DNA of 7,146 nt from Candidatus Binatia bacterium (lineage in GTDB: Bacteria > Desulfobacterota_B > Binatia > UBA9968), in assembly GCA_025922795.1 (NCBI GenBank), contig JAICHC010000136.1, positions 1 to 7,146 of the forward strand, written 5' to 3'. The translations under genes and the position numbers were made by a program. A model generated the notes under the pieces. It was not told where the DNA came from. It did no database searches and worked only from the letters and a program-made list of their open reading frames with translations. Within the stretch, counting starts at the first letter, position 1. Each line of letters begins with the position of its first letter. Shown here one piece after another: positions 1 through 7,146 of this stretch.

Positions 1-1954
1 AACGTTGGTCGCCGGGCCGCCACTCGCTCAGCTCGCATCGCGGCGCTTCGCCGTTCAACGTCGCAACGATTTTTAAAAGCTCGAGTAGGCTTAGGGTATT
101 GGCCGGCCCGCCGCCGATATTAAAGGCTCGGCCGGATAGTGAGCGCATGTGCGAGCGCGCCAGAAGGAAGGCGCGCACTAAGTCATCGATGTAAAGCACA
201 TCCCGCACTTGCATGCCGTCGCCGTACAAGGTGATCGGACGGCCATCGAGCGCGCAAATGAGAAAATGCGCGACCCATCCCTGATCCTCGTTGCCCATCT
301 GATGCGGGCCGTAGATGCAGCTCATGCGAAAGACGACGGCGGGCAAACCAAACGTGCGCGCGTAATCGATAATGTATTCATCGGCGGCCCCCTTGGAACA
401 TCCATAGGGACTGTGGAGATCGAGCGGCCGCGTTTCGTTGATGCCAAGCCGTCGGACTTCGGGATCACGGGGTCGGTAGGCGCCGTCCTCGCACTCGAGC
501 GCCACATCGTCCAGACCGCCGTAGACTTTGTTCGTCGAGGTATAGATGAGCGGCGCGGGATCGTCAGAGCCGCGCAAAGCTTCGAGCAGGTTGAGCGTGC
601 CGAGGGCATTCACGTCAAAATCATGGCGTGGATTGGCCAGGCTGGTGGTCACGGCCACCTGCGCGGCAAAATGAAAGACCTGTTTGGCGTAACGCACCGC
701 GCGGCGCAGCGCGTAGGGGTTGCGAATATCGGCGAACTCGACTTGAACGCGGCTGCCGTAGTTGTCCAGGAGCCAGCGCAGATTTCTTTCCGCGCCCGGC
801 CGCGAGAGATTGTCGTAGATCAACACCCGCTCGCCGTCGCTCGCCAGCCGATGCGCCAAATTGGTGCCGATGAATCCTGCGCCGCCGGTGATCAACACCG
901 GGGGGCAAGGCTTGGGACGCCGGCGCAACTCGCCGGCGCGAGGTTCCAAAGCGCGCCAGATCGCCTCGAGCCCGCCGCCGGCCCACAGGCGCGCGAGTAA
1001 CTTGGGCGTGCCGTCGTTGTCACGCAAACCGAAATGATATTCGCGGTCATCGGCATGAAAGCCGTCGCGCGCCGAACAATCGGGATTTAAATCGCGCGCC
1101 GAATACCAGTAGACGCGCTCAACCGGCGCCTCCAAAGCGGCGGTGAATGCGCGCATCTGCTCGTACTCGTCGTGACGCCAGGTGGAATAGCCCGTAGCGC
1201 TGATCCAGATTTCCGCGCCGGAGCGGTGCTGCGTGAGAATTTGCTGTACGCTTTGCACGACCGCGTTCCAGTTTTCCCAGCTGGTTTCGTAGGTGCCCGG
1301 GAACCCATGAATCCCAACGGCATCGATGTACTGCATAACGCCGCGCCGAAACATCAATTCGAGCCAGTTGGGATCGTAGACGTGCATGCCGGCGAGCACG
1401 GTGCGCTTGCCGCGGCGCTGTGCCCAATAGGCCGCGCCGCCCACCATGGCGGAAAAAGTTTGCCAGTGCGGATCCAACGTGCGATCCCATTCGGTCAGCT
1501 GGTCCGGCTCGTTCCACAATTCGATCCATTCAAAACAGTGCCCGAGGCGGGTGATCAACACGTCGATAAAATCGCCGTAAGCCTTGGGATCCCAGGGCGG
1601 CGCGGCGACTCGCGGCGCCACCGCTTGGCTGAGCGGCGTATAGAGCACGCAAGGCAAAACGTTCAGTTGATTCGCCAAATGCGGCAGCAGCCAGTTGTAC
1701 CACGCTGCTCCTTCCGGAGTGTCCCAGTCGGCCCAGGATACCATCGTGCGCAGATCGGTGACGCCCAAGGCGCGCAGTCCGGCGAGAGCGTCTTCGACGC
1801 CGTCACGATCGCCAGGACGAAAACATTCGACCACACCGACCCGCACGCCCGAACGCGCTGACTCCCCGTTCTGCGCCCGCAGGCTGGGGTGGCGCGTGAG
1901 CCCGAGCGCCGTCGCTTTGGCGATGGAGCGCGGGGGGCGCGGCATTTTCTTCAT
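1..1954 (-). CDS. Fusion protein: clan-A glycoside-hydrolase-like TIM barrel + CDP-paratose 2-epimerase (TyvE)-like domain, 3' end off the window
   Basis: Open from ATG at 1954 to the left edge: 651 codons (1954 to 2), no in-frame stop. Residues about 35-325 read as an eight-stranded barrel: VVECF near strand 1, LYTP at strand 3, IELWNEP (144-150, E149 the expected acid/base) at strand 4, VGIHGFPG at strand 6, IWISATGYST (249-258) at strand 7, and VYWYSARD then HFGL at the end. The usual second Glu is A253. A proline/arginine-rich linker (about 326-352) leads to an extended SDR domain: TGGAGFIG (356-363), YDNLSR (380-385), STNKVYGG (473-480), HSPYGCSKGAADEY with Y517 and K521, QVRDVLY (582-588), FNIGGG, and a final DQR at 649-651. 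These match the CDP-tyvelose epimerase family, so about 50 residues are probably missing. No signal peptide is seen, so it is presumably cytoplasmic. The substrate of either half is unknown. Its start overlaps the upstream epimerase stop. Confidence 0.9.
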   Translation of the reverse strand, partial: MKKMPRPPRSIAKATALGLTRHPSLRAQNGESARSGVRVGVVECFRPGDRDGVEDALAGLRALGVTDLRTMVSWADWDTPEGAAWYNWLLPHLANQLNVLPCVLYTPLSQAVAPRVAAPPWDPKAYGDFIDVLITRLGHCFEWIELWNEPDQLTEWDRTLDPHWQTFSAMVGGAAYWAQRRGKRTVLAGMHVYDPNWLELMFRRGVMQYIDAVGIHGFPGTYETSWENWNAVVQSVQQILTQHRSGAEIWISATGYSTWRHDEYEQMRAFTAALEAPVERVYWYSARDLNPDCSARDGFHADDREYHFGLRDNDGTPKLLARLWAGGGLEAIWRALEPRAGELRRRPKPCPPVLITGGAGFIGTNLAHRLASDGERVLIYDNLSRPGAERNLRWLLDNYGSRVQVEFADIRNPYALRRAVRYAKQVFHFAAQVAVTTSLANPRHDFDVNALGTLNLLEALRGSDDPAPLIYTSTNKVYGGLDDVALECEDGAYRPRDPEVRRLGINETRPLDLHSPYGCSKGAADEYIIDYARTFGLPAVVFRMSCIYGPHQMGNEDQGWVAHFLICALDGRPITLYGDGMQVRDVLYIDDLVRAFLLARSHMRSLSGRAFNIGGGPANTLSLLELLKIVATLNGEAPRCELSEWRPGDQR

Positions 1955-3063
1955 AATGTGAGTCCTCGCTGCGCCAGTTCCGCGCTGGCGGTCTCGACGC
2001 GATCCATGGCAGTTCGCCCGTCGAGCCACGCGCTCAATTCCAAAATGCCTTCTTTCAAGCCTATTCTCGGCGCGTAGCCGAGACACGAGCGTGCCAAGCT
2101 GATATCGGCAAAGCAATGACGGATGTCGCCGACACGATACTTGCGAGTTATATGCGGCTCGATATCCTCTTTGCCCAGGGCTTGGGCCATACGCACGGCG
2201 AGCTCGCGAATGTTATAGCTCTCGCCGCTGCCGATATTGAAGATCCGCTCGGCCGTCGGCGGCGCATCGAGGCACAACAAGCAGGCGTGTACGACGTCGT
2301 GCACGCTGACGAAATCGCGCTTCTGTTCGCCGTCTTCGAAGATCAACGGCGGCTTTTTGTTTAAATAGCGCGACGCGAAGATCGCCAGCACGCCGGTGTA
2401 AGGATTGGACAGCGACTGGCGCGGCCCGTAGACATTAAAAAAACGCAGAGCGATGGTCGGAATATGATAGGAGCGTCCAACCATCAAGCACATGCATTCC
2501 TGCACGTACTTGGTGAGTGCGTAAACCGAGCTTAGGCACGGTGATTTGGTCTCCGGAGTGGCCACCGGTTCCAGTGCTTCGCCGCGCTCGTCGGTGAAAT
2601 CCCAAGCGGCTCTTTTCAGTTGCTCCAGGGGACGTTCGGCGACCACGTGCAAAGATCCATCCGAGCCGCAATACAAACCTTCGCCGTAAACGCTCATGCT
2701 CGAGGCGACGATCAATCTCTCGACCGGCTGCGCCGCCAACGCTTCGAGTAGCACCGCCGTGCCCAGGGCATTCGTGCTCGTGTAACTTTGAATTTCATAC
2801 ATGCTCTGGCCGACGCCGACGGCCGCGGCGAAATGATAGACTGTATCGATGCCGCGCAATGCGCGACGCACGAGGGATTCATCGCGCAGATCGCCGCGCA
2901 CCAGCTCGACGTCTGAATGAAGATAGTCGGGGTCATTGTCATCATGGACCTGGGAGACCAATGAATCGAGCACACGCACTTCATAGCCTCGGCTGAGCAG
3001 TTGGTCGGCGAGATGGGAGCCGATGAAACCTGCGCCGCCGGTGATGAGAATTCGCCGGCTCAT
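1951..3063 (-). CDS. NAD-dependent sugar-nucleotide epimerase, dTDP-L-rhamnose 4-epimerase-like (extended SDR)
   Basis: Complete, 370 residues. The N-terminus carries the NAD-binding TGGAGFIG glycine motif (residues 8-15). The active site shows ASSMSVYG (120-127) and YALTK (Y181, K185), the SDR Tyr/Lys pair. RFFNVYGPRQSLSNPYTGV (207-225) and GEQKRDFVSVHDV (245-257) follow. The length, the insert between the Ser and Tyr motifs, and the SLSNPYTGV stretch resemble dTDP-L-rhamnose 4-epimerases (WbiB type) more than short GalE proteins; such enzymes interconvert dTDP-L-rhamnose and dTDP-6-deoxy-L-talose. As I recall the family, the insert carries two Cys pairs; here only C132 remains (see findings). 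The substrate is therefore inferred; a UDP-hexose 4-epimerase is the alternative. It is the first gene of a minus-strand operon, overlapping the fusion gene by 4 bases. Confidence 0.9.
   Translation of the reverse strand: MSRRILITGGAGFIGSHLADQLLSRGYEVRVLDSLVSQVHDDNDPDYLHSDVELVRGDLRDESLVRRALRGIDTVYHFAAAVGVGQSMYEIQSYTSTNALGTAVLLEALAAQPVERLIVASSMSVYGEGLYCGSDGSLHVVAERPLEQLKRAAWDFTDERGEALEPVATPETKSPCLSSVYALTKYVQECMCLMVGRSYHIPTIALRFFNVYGPRQSLSNPYTGVLAIFASRYLNKKPPLIFEDGEQKRDFVSVHDVVHACLLCLDAPPTAERIFNIGSGESYNIRELAVRMAQALGKEDIEPHITRKYRVGDIRHCFADISLARSCLGYAPRIGLKEGILELSAWLDGRTAMDRVETASAELAQRGLTL
1963..1967 (-). promoter_or_regulatory. Ribosome binding site of the fusion gene
   Basis: GAGGA on the minus strand lies 8 bases before the ATG at 1954, inside the last codons of the upstream epimerase gene. 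It supports the start at 1954 rather than the in-frame ATG three codons later, and with the ATGA overlap it suggests coupled translation. Confidence 0.6.
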
Positions 3064-4137: not shown

Positions 4138-6291
4138 ATGGAAGATATCATCCGCCTGACGGACGACTACTATATCATCACTCCGGCTTCGACGACGGGC
4201 GAAGTGCGGGTGCTCAAACAAGGTGAAAGTTTCGGCGTGTTTGCCCGCTGCGGCGACATTGAACATGCCGGTCTGGGCGAGCAAGGGATTTATCATGCGG
4301 GCACGCGCTTTCTGTCGCTGCTCGCCTTACGGATCGGCAACCTGCGTCCTTTTCTGCTCAACTCGACAGTCAAAAAGGATAATCTGTTATTCACGATCAA
4401 TTTGACCAATCCTGATATTTACGTGAACGGCAGAGTCATTTTGCGGCGTGGCGATCTGCATGTGTTTCGCAGCAAGTTTATTTGGCAGGCGGCCTGCTTT
4501 GAGACCATCGAGCTGGCCAACTACAGTCTGTTGCCGGTGGAATTGTCATTCACGTTGCAATACGACGCGGACTTCGCCGACATTTTCGAAGTACGCGGCC
4601 TTAACCGGAAAAAACGCGGCCAGCGTTTGCCGGATCAGATTACCGCAAATCGCGTTGTCTTGGCCTATCAGGGATTGGACGGTGTTCTGCGGCAGAGCGA
4701 AATCGATTTTACGCCGGCGCCGGAAAATCTCTCGGCGTCGCGCGCTTACTTTCGACGTGTTTTGATGCCCGGCAAAGCCGAACAGGTTGAAATTACCTAC
4801 GGGTTCAATATCGATCACCAATCGCCGGGCCGCCGCCCGCGGCGGGCGGCGCTCGAGGCGGCCGAAAAGTCGATTGGAATTTGTAAGAGCGACGAATGTC
4901 ATCTGCACACGTCGAATCAAGAATTCAATCGCTGGCTCGACCGTTCGTCCGCTGACTTGCATATGATGATCACGAAAACCGAGCATGGTCTTTATCCCTA
5001 TGCGGGCGTACCTTGGTACAGCACGCCCTTCGGCCGCGATGGCATCATCACGGCGCTGTTTGTCTTGTGGATCAACCCGCGCTTTGCGCAAGGTGTGTTG
5101 CATTACCTGGCCGCCCATCAAGCGACCGAGACTATTCCTGAAAGAGACGCCACGCCGGGAAAAATACTGCACGAAGTCCGGCGCGGCGAAATGGCAGCGC
5201 TCAATGAGATTCCGTTCGGCTGCTACTACGGCAGCACCGACTCCACGCCTCTGTTCGTCATGCTTGCGGGAGCGTATTACGAGCGCACCGGCGATCGGCA
5301 ATTCATCGAGTCGATCTGGCCGGAGATCCTGTTGGCGCTGGAATGGATCGACAAATACGGCGATGTCGACGGCGACGGTTTCGTCGAAACCACGCGCCAA
5401 TCGTCACGTGGTTTGGCGCAGCAGGGTTGGAAAGACTCTTGGGACGCGATTTCACACGCCGACGGCTCGCTGCCGGAAGGGCCGATCGCCCTCTGCGAAG
5501 TGCAAGGCTATGCGTACGCGGCAAAACAGGCGGGCGTCCGCCTGGCCACCAGTCTCGGCCACATCGAGCAGGCGCGCACCTTGCTCGAGCAGGCGCGCCG
5601 GCTGCGGGAAAAATTCAACGAGGTATTCTGGTGCGATGACCTCTCCAGTTATGCCCTGGCGTTGGACGGCGAAAAGCGACCCTGCCGTGTGGTTGCGTCC
5701 AACGCCGGTCACGCGCTGTTCACGGGCATTGCTTCCGATAAGTGTGCCCGCCGGGTCGCTGACCGGTTCATGAACGAAGATATGTTTTCAGGATGGGGCG
5801 TGCGCACGTTGTCCTCCAAAGAGGTGCGCTACAATCCGATGTCTTATCACAACGGCTCGGTTTGGCCCCATGATAACGCGATCATTGGCGCGGGCTTTGC
5901 CAACTACGGCCTGAAAGAAGAGGTTAACCGAATCTTCACCGGCCTGTTCGAAGCCAGCATGTTCTTCGATATGGAGCGCCTGCCGGAACTATTCTGCGGT
6001 TTCCGCCGCCGTGAGGGAGAAGGGCCGATTCACTATCCGACAGCTTGCGCGCCGCAGGCGTGGGCGGCCGCGTCGGTCTTCTTGATGCTGCAAGCTTCGT
6101 TGGGGCTGTCGATCGACGCTCCGGCGTTGGAGGTGCGCTTTTCCACGCCCATGCTGCCGCCGTTCCTCGAAAAGGTGTATGCTAAAAATCTCCGGATCGG
6201 AAATGCTTCGGTCGACCTGGTGCGCGACCGTTCGCTGCGCTCGGTTTCGGTGGAAAGGAGCGAGGGCGACGCCGCCATCGTCATCCGTTAG
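4138..6291 (+). CDS. Amylo-alpha-1,6-glucosidase-like protein (glycogen debranching type, bis N-terminal domain)
   Basis: Complete, 717 residues. The N-terminal domain (about 20-215) has the pattern of the bis-type glycogen-debranching N-terminal domain: VLKQGESFGVF, then GEQGIYHAGTRFLS. The second half (about 255-700) is an alpha/alpha-barrel glucosidase of the GH133-like debranching family: PWYSTPFGRDGI (292-303), WKDSWDAI (431-438, D433 a likely catalytic acid), EVQGYAYAAKQAG, and YHNGSVWPHDNAI (570-582). Known relatives cleave alpha-1,6-linked glucose at branch points, but many bacterial members of this two-domain type are untested. No signal peptide is seen, so it is probably cytoplasmic. 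ATG 4138 is the only ATG start after the in-frame stop at 4117, yet no Shine-Dalgarno sequence precedes it. No glycogen synthesis or phosphorylase gene lies nearby; the neighbours are epimerases and a GT4, so a role in another glucan or glycoside is possible. Confidence 0.92.
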   Translation: MEDIIRLTDDYYIITPASTTGEVRVLKQGESFGVFARCGDIEHAGLGEQGIYHAGTRFLSLLALRIGNLRPFLLNSTVKKDNLLFTINLTNPDIYVNGRVILRRGDLHVFRSKFIWQAACFETIELANYSLLPVELSFTLQYDADFADIFEVRGLNRKKRGQRLPDQITANRVVLAYQGLDGVLRQSEIDFTPAPENLSASRAYFRRVLMPGKAEQVEITYGFNIDHQSPGRRPRRAALEAAEKSIGICKSDECHLHTSNQEFNRWLDRSSADLHMMITKTEHGLYPYAGVPWYSTPFGRDGIITALFVLWINPRFAQGVLHYLAAHQATETIPERDATPGKILHEVRRGEMAALNEIPFGCYYGSTDSTPLFVMLAGAYYERTGDRQFIESIWPEILLALEWIDKYGDVDGDGFVETTRQSSRGLAQQGWKDSWDAISHADGSLPEGPIALCEVQGYAYAAKQAGVRLATSLGHIEQARTLLEQARRLREKFNEVFWCDDLSSYALALDGEKRPCRVVASNAGHALFTGIASDKCARRVADRFMNEDMFSGWGVRTLSSKEVRYNPMSYHNGSVWPHDNAIIGAGFANYGLKEEVNRIFTGLFEASMFFDMERLPELFCGFRRREGEGPIHYPTACAPQAWAAASVFLMLQASLGLSIDAPALEVRFSTPMLPPFLEKVYAKNLRIGNASVDLVRDRSLRSVSVERSEGDAAIVIR

Positions 6292-6377: not shown

Positions 6378-7146
6378 CTAATCCTTCAGCAATCGTTCGT
6401 AAATCCTCAGATAATCCTCCGCCATGCGGGCGGCGCTAAAGCGCTCTTCGAAGCGGCTCCGACAAAGAGCTCGATCAAGACGGCGAGCATCGTCAACGGC
6501 TTGCACGGCATCGCCGACATTATCGACGATGAAGCCGGTCACACCGTGTTCAACGATCTCGGGCACCGAAGCGCAGCGATAGGCGATCACCGGTGTTCCG
6601 CAAGCCATGGCTTCGATCATCACCAAACCGAACGGTTCGGGCCAGTCGATCGGAAACAGCAGGGCATGGGCATTGGCGAGTAGATCTTGCTTCCCGGCAT
6701 CGCCGACCTCGCCGATGCATTCCACCTGCGGATCGTCCAGCAAATGTTCGATCGTTTTGAAATACTTGCGGTCCACCGCATCGACCTTGGCGGCGACCTT
6801 TAGCCGCATGCCCGAGCGCTTGGCGATCTCGACGGCGCGATCCAGACGCTTTTCAATTGAAATTCGCCCGAGAAAAACCAGGTAGTCCTCGCGCTCGCCG
6901 CCTTCATGATAGAGTTCGGTCGGCAGGCCGTGGTAGACGGTTCCCTGCCAATTGAGCCAAGGCAGGACCTGGCGCTGCGCGCGCGAGATCGAGACTACCG
7001 GCACATCGCCGAATTTTCTGTAGAGCGGAATCAGATCAGTCATATCGAGGCGCCCGTGCAGCGTGCTCAGATGGCGCGTGGTGTGCCGCCGCGAAAACGG
7101 ATAGTGCAGATAATCGATGTGAAAGTGCAGGATATCGAAATCGTCG
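6378..7146 (-). CDS. Glycosyltransferase family 4 protein (GT-B fold), 5' end off the window
   Basis: The frame is open from the right edge to TAG at 6378; 255 residues are visible (7145 to 6381). The ATG at 7043 is not the real start: in-frame residues upstream of it read HFHIDYLHYPF and TLHGRLD, typical of the N-terminal Rossmann domain of GT4 enzymes, so roughly 100 or more residues lie outside. The visible part has VSISRAQR, the domain junction TVYHGLP, YLVFLGRISIEKRLDRAVEIA (start of the nucleotide-sugar-binding domain), and EPFGLVMIEAMACGTPVIA with the EX7E pair at 6636-6638 and 6612-6614, followed by PEIVEHGVTGFIV. It would transfer a sugar from an activated donor with retention of configuration; donor and acceptor are unknown. 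It converges on the debranching-type gene, 86 bases apart, and no clear terminator is visible between them. Confidence 0.93.
   Translation of the reverse strand, partial: DDFDILHFHIDYLHYPFSRRHTTRHLSTLHGRLDMTDLIPLYRKFGDVPVVSISRAQRQVLPWLNWQGTVYHGLPTELYHEGGEREDYLVFLGRISIEKRLDRAVEIAKRSGMRLKVAAKVDAVDRKYFKTIEHLLDDPQVECIGEVGDAGKQDLLANAHALLFPIDWPEPFGLVMIEAMACGTPVIAYRCASVPEIVEHGVTGFIVDNVGDAVQAVDDARRLDRALCRSRFEERFSAARMAEDYLRIYERLLKD

What the first reader, a model, noticed from the sequence alone, without database searches (positions are those of the whole stretch)
1..1954. Glycoside-hydrolase-like barrel fused to a sugar-nucleotide epimerase
A single uninterrupted frame of at least 651 codons joins a clan-A TIM barrel (WNEP motif, strand 6 and 8 hallmarks) to a TyvE-like CDP-paratose 2-epimerase domain. 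Hydrolases normally act on glycans and are often exported, whereas epimerases act on cytosolic nucleotide sugars; one polypeptide carrying both, without a signal peptide, suggests an unusual cytosolic role such as sensing, salvaging or proofreading a glycan intermediate. The coding strand is easily missed because the gene runs off the window and long antisense frames cover it.
Basis: partly seen in the sequence, partly recalled or inferred. Interest (0 to 1): 0.75.

Follow-up and report, generated by a model that had tools for sequence, protein, structure and literature searches.

The report
Epimerase fused to disarmed sugar-cutting barrel
A bacterial gene joins a sugar-converting enzyme to a sugar-cutting barrel that has lost a key catalytic acid, and related gene clusters also make a second, circularly rearranged barrel that still has its catalytic acids.

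Summary
One open frame (window 1954 to 2, minus strand, 651 codons, running off the left edge) joins a TIM barrel (residues 38-335) to a TyvE-type sugar-nucleotide 2-epimerase domain (351 to end). The fusion is widespread, not a frameshift; databases name it only as an epimerase, and Pfam has no model for the barrel.

(1) The barrel's closest solved relative is PslG, the glycosidase of the Psl polysaccharide operon. (2) In this protein's clade the residue at the nucleophile position is Ala or Ser in 46 of 46, yet the pocket is conserved and under purifying selection. (3) Related clusters also encode a second, circularly permuted barrel (strands 4-8, then 1-3) with both glutamates intact. In 9 of 9 whole genomes where I found both, the fused barrel lacks the nucleophile; one plasmid (Rhizobium sp. 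CB3090) has both intact.

Best reading: a glycan-binding pseudoglycosidase tethered to an epimerase in an oligosaccharide cassette, with cutting left to the permuted paralogue. The residue loss is shown; binding and handover are inferred.

The parts
2..1954 (-). Barrel-epimerase fusion gene, incomplete at its 3' end (651 codons in the window)
950..1843 (-). N-terminal PslG-like TIM barrel, residues 38-335
   Evidence: AlphaFold2; PslG first by profile, Foldseek and VIA-align 2
1508..1510 (-). Glu149 in WNEP, end of strand 4: retained acid/base position (aligned with PslG Glu165)
1196..1198 (-). Ala253, end of strand 7: nucleophile position (aligned with PslG Glu276), Glu absent
905..949 (-). 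Interdomain linker, residues 336-350 (residues 339-344 under pLDDT 50 in the whole-protein model of P0002)
2..904 (-). TyvE-type NDP-sugar 2-epimerase domain (residues 351-651, cut by the window edge); Thr474, Tyr517, Lys521 kept; the position of TyvE Trp210 is His563
   Evidence: TyvE residues from PMC7851689 section 6
1951..3063 (-). Upstream SDR epimerase/dehydratase, ATGA overlap with the fusion; directly upstream of the fusion in 6 of 6 fusion loci of genome contigs

Best explanation
In relatives the gene belongs to a conserved sugar-assembly cassette (that of NCBI families TIGR04290 methyltransferase and TIGR04295 'B12_rSAM_oligo'). Its C-terminal half is a TyvE-type epimerase that should invert C2 of an NDP-sugar for the cluster's glycosyltransferases. 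Its N-terminal half descends from a PslG-like retaining glycosidase that acted inside the cell on the cluster's glycan. In the window's lineage the barrel has lost the catalytic nucleophile and should not hydrolyse, but it keeps the sugar pocket, and most likely binds the nascent glycan or the assembly complex and holds the epimerase there. Cutting is provided in trans by a permuted paralogue encoded a few genes away. Shown: fold (predicted), fusion, loss of the nucleophile residue, pocket conservation, purifying selection, conserved cluster and permuted paralogue with intact catalytic pair in relatives. Inferred: glycan binding, handover, epimerase activity, and presence of the permuted gene in the window's own genome.
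Against: No binding or activity data. Rhizobium sp. CB3090 has an intact fusion and an intact permuted barrel, so the two are not mutually exclusive; G024 has an intact fusion and an intact unpermuted barrel. With relatedness controlled there are only 2 independent pairs and the sign test gives p = 1. Absence of the permuted gene was tested on plasmid records only, not on chromosomes. The permuted gene lies outside the window; of 4 related genomes with the fusion, 3 show it, and in G001 it was not found (its fusion contig is 6,870 bases). 8 of the 10 barrel dS values exceed 1. Other lineages lost only the acid/base (K/E, Q/E) and their context is unknown.
Confidence: 0.5

Rival explanations
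1. The barrel is a structural relic: it helps folding or dimerisation of the epimerase and no longer binds sugar.
For: Catalytic positions change repeatedly: at least 3 nucleophile and 4 acid/base changes on the 116-protein tree, 5 and 5 on a 55-protein tree. Sinorhizobium and some other bacteria carry an epimerase match without the barrel.
Against: Pocket residues Arg69, Glu149, His216 and Trp283 stay in 45-46 of 46 clade members.
Confidence: 0.22
2. Working bifunctional hydrolase-epimerase, as the reader suggests (proofreading or salvage); Ala253 is compensated by another residue or by the substrate.
For: Glu149 is kept in 45 of 46; many relatives keep both glutamates (152 of 235).
Against: PslG E165Q,E276Q does not complement (PMC9075953 passages; a double mutant); a permuted paralogue with both glutamates accompanies the fusion in 3 of 4 related genomes.
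Confidence: 0.13
3. Natural glycosynthase: with Ala/Ser in place of the nucleophile and the acid/base kept, the barrel uses an alpha-NDP-sugar delivered by the fused epimerase to build a beta-glycosidic bond.
For: Ala and Ser are the classic engineered glycosynthase changes (recalled, no call); Glu149 retained in 45 of 46 of this clade; donor-modifying domain in the same chain.
Against: The cluster already has several glycosyltransferases; the fusions of the Acidobacteria order examined lost both glutamates (L005, L006, L069, L070, L071); a nucleotide site in the barrel was not looked for.
Confidence: 0.06
4. Frameshift or assembly artefact joining two genes.
For: The frame runs off the window edge.
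Against: 116 of 235 listed proteins are 600 aa or longer; the same fusion is in completed plasmids.
Confidence: 0.01

Closest known systems
CDP-tyvelose/paratose 2-epimerase (TyvE; PDB 1orr, 9rl0; TaCPa2E of Rapp et al. 2021)
   Different: Fused behind a barrel; Trp210 of the CDP site is His563 (90% or more of alignment A1), so the nucleotide is not assigned
PslG (P. aeruginosa; PDB 4zn2, 5bx9, 9g17)
   Same: Closest solved barrel by sequence and by fold; a glycosidase of a polysaccharide operon
   Different: Here no hydrophobic leader, fusion to an epimerase, nucleophile Glu replaced by Ala
Permuted paralogue: JGI 'beta-xylosidase', weak PF11790 (Asl1-like core) match, beside the TIGR04290 methyltransferase
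   Same: Same barrel family and same gene clusters
   Different: Strand order 4-8 then 1-3, usually stand-alone, both catalytic glutamates kept
Other natural permutations of glycosidases: GH70 versus GH13 (recalled); MalS of GH13_19 (abstract start in the listing)
   Same: Natural permutation in a barrel glycosidase
   Different: Another clan; here a PslG-like barrel, with an unpermuted barrel at the syntenic place in genome G024

Membership tests
TyvE (CDP-tyvelose/paratose 2-epimerase) | Extended-SDR fold with glycine-rich NAD motif | tested here: met
TyvE (CDP-tyvelose/paratose 2-epimerase) | Catalytic Thr124, Tyr164, Lys168 (as listed in PMC7851689 section 6) | tested here: met
   Thr474, Tyr517, Lys521; (my count on the 1orr chain is one higher than the paper's numbers)
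TyvE (CDP-tyvelose/paratose 2-epimerase) | CDP-binding Trp207, Trp210, Phe211 (same source) | tested here: not met
   Trp560, His563, Phe564: Trp210 replaced. Hence filed only as TyvE-like, nucleotide open
TyvE (CDP-tyvelose/paratose 2-epimerase) | C2-epimerase activity | not testable with these tools
   needs an assay
PslG-like retaining glycosidase (clan GH-A type) | (beta/alpha)8 barrel | tested here: met
   predicted structure
PslG-like retaining glycosidase (clan GH-A type) | Acid/base Glu at the end of strand 4 | tested here: met
   Glu149
PslG-like retaining glycosidase (clan GH-A type) | Nucleophile Glu at the end of strand 7 | tested here: not met
   Ala253; 46 of 46 of the clade Ala or Ser. 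Hence not filed as a hydrolase
PslG-like retaining glycosidase (clan GH-A type) | Inner-membrane/periplasmic location as in PslG | tested here: inconclusive
   no hydrophobic N-terminus by hydropathy; no signal-peptide predictor was run
TIGR04290/TIGR04295 oligosaccharide cassette | Fusion and upstream SDR next to cassette genes in relatives | tested here: met
TIGR04290/TIGR04295 oligosaccharide cassette | Cassette genes beside the window's own copy | not testable with these tools
   only the upstream SDR lies in the window, which ends inside the fusion; no genome is held

The most novel reading that the evidence does not exclude
A natural glycosynthase: a PslG-like barrel that lost its nucleophile but kept its acid/base, fed with an alpha-NDP-sugar by the epimerase on the same chain, so that an old hydrolase now makes the bond it once cut, while a circularly permuted paralogue keeps the cutting role.
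Probability: 0.05. Interest if true: 0.92.

Novelty: new variant of a known kind. Interest (0 to 1): 0.6.

Why it matters
A hydrolase-type domain rides on a biosynthetic epimerase inside the cell, loses its catalytic residues in several lineages while its sugar pocket stays conserved, and a circularly permuted paralogue with an intact catalytic pair occurs in related clusters. That makes the question why polysaccharide clusters carry their own glycosidase testable in harmless model bacteria: Sinorhizobium meliloti pSymB has the stand-alone epimerase plus permuted barrel, Rhizobium leguminosarum WSM1325 has the intact fusion. Current names (CDP-paratose 2-epimerase, GDP-mannose 4,6-dehydratase) hide the barrel.

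Tried and rejected
Frameshift or two genes: rejected on relatives. Pfam on the barrel alone: no hit at E up to 10. Whole-protein fold searches listed epimerases only, because that domain filled the list; the barrel was then folded alone. A strict rule 'exactly one active barrel per cluster' was considered and rejected: CB3090 and G024 have two intact barrels. A statistical link between fused-barrel decay and the permuted gene cannot be claimed: 2 independent pairs, p = 1. That the unpermuted barrel of G024 is the direct counterpart of the permuted clade is unproven: it lies outside both clades on a long branch and scores higher with the fusion-barrel profile (296.8 bits) than with the permuted profile (183.1 bits). 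Rotating the permuted protein raised its PF11790 score only from 23.4 to 25.5 bits. The two halves of the permuted profile hit PslG weakly when taken alone (i-Evalues 0.23 and 0.48). Viral contigs: nothing. Rfam on the window: nothing at gathering scores. Paper searches for this fusion, this permutation, the two TIGR families and the S. meliloti cluster gave no description; of their hits I opened only PMC8787198 (passages), the rest were seen as listings, and the library lacks most subscription papers. (glycosynthase, pseudoenzyme) were seen as listings only.

Full report
WHAT IS THERE. The window holds a minus-strand frame of 651 codons from ATG 1954-1952 to the left edge. It starts inside the stop codon of an SDR gene (1951-3063, minus) through an ATGA overlap, so the two are probably translated together (inference). 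Long plus-strand frames lie over it (209-1000 and 1172-1861); I did not test them further. The right part of the window carries a glycogen-debranching-like gene (4138-6291, plus) and a GT4 glycosyltransferase (6378-7145, minus, cut).

HOW FAR THE LOSS GOES. Of 235 listed proteins aligned (window piece and fragments included), the pair 149/253 is E/E in 152, E/A 34, E/S 14, K/E 9, E/D 5, Q/E 4, E/K 3, R/Q 3, Q/Q 2, E/G 2, E/gap 2 and one each of D/S, S/Q, A/G, A/E, E/Q. These are the best hits of two searches, not a random sample. On a FastTree tree of the 116 of them with at least 600 aa, trait columns left out, the window's clade (46 rows with the window, support 100) has no Glu at 253; the fewest changes are 3 for the nucleophile and 4 for the acid/base; on a second tree of 55 chosen proteins both are 5. 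In the clade (46 sequences) the pocket stays: Glu149 45, Arg69 45 (1 gap), His216 45, Trp283 46, Asn148 41. Barrel dN/dS is 0.046-0.149 for the ten pairs among the window and L001-L004, epimerase half 0.055-0.126; 8 of the 10 barrel dS values exceed 1, but L001-L003 has dS 0.12 and a ratio of 0.111. So the barrel is kept by selection without the nucleophile.

THE CLUSTER. In the six genome-contig loci with the fusion (of seven returned) the SDR lies directly upstream. Around them, in varying sets, sit Zn-alcohol dehydrogenase, inositol-3-phosphate synthase, a MocA oxidoreductase, a histidine phosphatase, a GT4, CgeB-like glycosyltransferases, a nucleotidyltransferase, the TIGR04290 methyltransferase (380.5 bits, cut-off 300) and the TIGR04295 'B12_rSAM_oligo' radical SAM protein (700.1 bits, cut-off 400) ('CgeB-like' is my label for the PF13524 proteins). 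Neighbours are sometimes fused: barrel-epimerase plus Zn-ADH domains in P0105 (1041 aa), methyltransferase plus permuted barrel in P0288, and SDR-barrel-epimerase in one 1260-codon open frame in genome G024 (not shown to be translated as one).

THE PERMUTED PARALOGUE. A whole-genome profile search showed in five of six genomes (G002-G006) a second match in swapped order: profile 132-314 first, 22-135 directly after; in four it is on the fusion's contig, in G003 on another. The protein (294 aa in L006; JGI name beta-xylosidase) starts just before WNEP, right behind the methyltransferase gene in L002 and L006. Evidence for permutation: against the fusion-barrel profile the native chain scores as two pieces (122.8 and 59.4 bits, order swapped), the rotated chain as one (197.2 bits); 120 of 120 listed proteins show the swapped order; its own profile hits PslG in swapped halves (200-293 on 25-128 and 3-192 on 132-330; whole-sequence E 4.9e-6, halves alone 0.23 and 0.48); 14 permuted proteins form one group with support 100 apart from 38 canonical-order barrels. 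In G024 the place behind the methyltransferase holds an unpermuted barrel (one continuous profile match) that falls outside both groups. Both glutamates are present in 120 of 120 listed permuted proteins, which are the nearest of 8000 matches.

WHO HAS WHICH. Fusion without the nucleophile Glu plus intact permuted barrel: G002, G003, G004 (E/A), G005 and G006 (Q/Q), G544 (H/Q), G505 (R/A), G539 (T/Q, fusion on a contig edge, with a second fusion fragment that has Arg at the acid/base), G273 (N/G): 9 of 9 whole genomes in which both were found. Fusion with Glu/Glu and no permuted gene seen: plasmid stretches L051, L052, L053, L058, L059, L061, L062, L063, L067, 9 of 9 fetched; the barrel of L053 (X. 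sacchari) lies in two frames and may be broken. Glu/Glu fusion plus intact permuted barrel: Rhizobium sp. CB3090 (L054). Stand-alone TyvE-like epimerase plus permuted barrel: S. meliloti Rm41 pSymB (L050). Permuted barrel and SDR but no fused barrel: G351, G437. In the plasmid collection 97 of 146 records hit by the permuted query are covered at 80% or more, 50 of 154 records hit by the fusion query are covered at 80% or more, and the permuted query has 147 places in 146 records, the one record with two places being CB3090 (most records are near copies from Sinorhizobium and Rhizobium, and chromosomes are not in that collection). The phylogeny-aware test has two independent pairs and cannot decide (p = 1). 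Whole-genome tallies with the barrel profile (fused or permuted): 2 of 99 genomes and 9 of 149 (8 of the 9 are weak, distant matches) at E 1e-8, 1 of 13 at 1e-15, and at 1e-20 6 of 297, 18 of 150, 4 of 35 (the same genomes) and 14 of 48. Several genomes recur between calls.

HOW IT MOST LIKELY WORKS. PslG sits at the inner membrane and periplasm, and its activity matters for Psl production (PMC9075953 passages). By analogy the ancestral fused barrel trimmed or released the cluster's glycan while the same chain made a sugar donor. In the window's lineage the barrel should not form the covalent intermediate. The conserved pocket suggests glycan binding, so the simplest role is to hold the epimerase at the assembly site, with the permuted paralogue doing the cutting. 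That last part is inference, and the permuted gene has not been seen in the window's own genome. The boldest reading not excluded is a natural glycosynthase, because the replacing residues are Ala and Ser and the acid/base is kept.

NOVELTY. The fusion is known to databases as an epimerase or dehydratase only. The PslG-like barrel within it, the clade-wide loss of its nucleophile, and the permuted paralogue with an unpermuted barrel at the same place in one genome were not found described in the searches named under Tried and rejected.

Noticed in passing
L006:18679-19563 (+), L002 about 8890-9830 (+), and relatives: Circularly permuted PslG-like barrel behind the TIGR04290 methyltransferase, named beta-xylosidase by JGI; both glutamates intact.
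   Followed up: yes
L032:7158-10937 (+): In genome G024 one 1260-codon open frame carries SDR, barrel and TyvE-like epimerase together.
   Followed up: partly
L032:18663-19643 (+): Unpermuted barrel at the place where other clusters have the permuted one.
   Followed up: partly
P0288; P0105: Further fusions of cluster neighbours: methyltransferase with permuted barrel, and barrel-epimerase with Zn-alcohol dehydrogenase domains.
   Followed up: no
window 4138-6291 (+) and 6378-7145 (-): Glycogen-debranching-like enzyme (GDE_N_bis plus MGH1-like GH domain) and a GT4 glycosyltransferase beside the SDR-fusion pair; no debranching homologue appeared in the 13 loci compared.
   Followed up: partly
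L050 (S. meliloti Rm41 pSymB): The same cassette in a model symbiont, with a barrel-free epimerase; no function found in the papers searched.
   Followed up: partly
L084:1189-1974 and 1802-2821 (-): Permuted barrel of genome G603 lies in two overlapping frames, perhaps an assembly frameshift or a broken gene.
   Followed up: no
L053:10625-12190 and 11377-13881 (+): The fused barrel on the Xanthomonas sacchari plasmid lies in two frames; the annotated gene starts inside the barrel.
   Followed up: no
L071 and L111 (genome G539): Two fusion fragments on different contigs differ at the acid/base position (Thr and Arg): two copies or mixed strains.
   Followed up: no
L044:15267-17300 (-): Fused barrel of G273 lost both catalytic residues (WANP; Gly at the nucleophile position) and sits on a long branch.
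   Followed up: no
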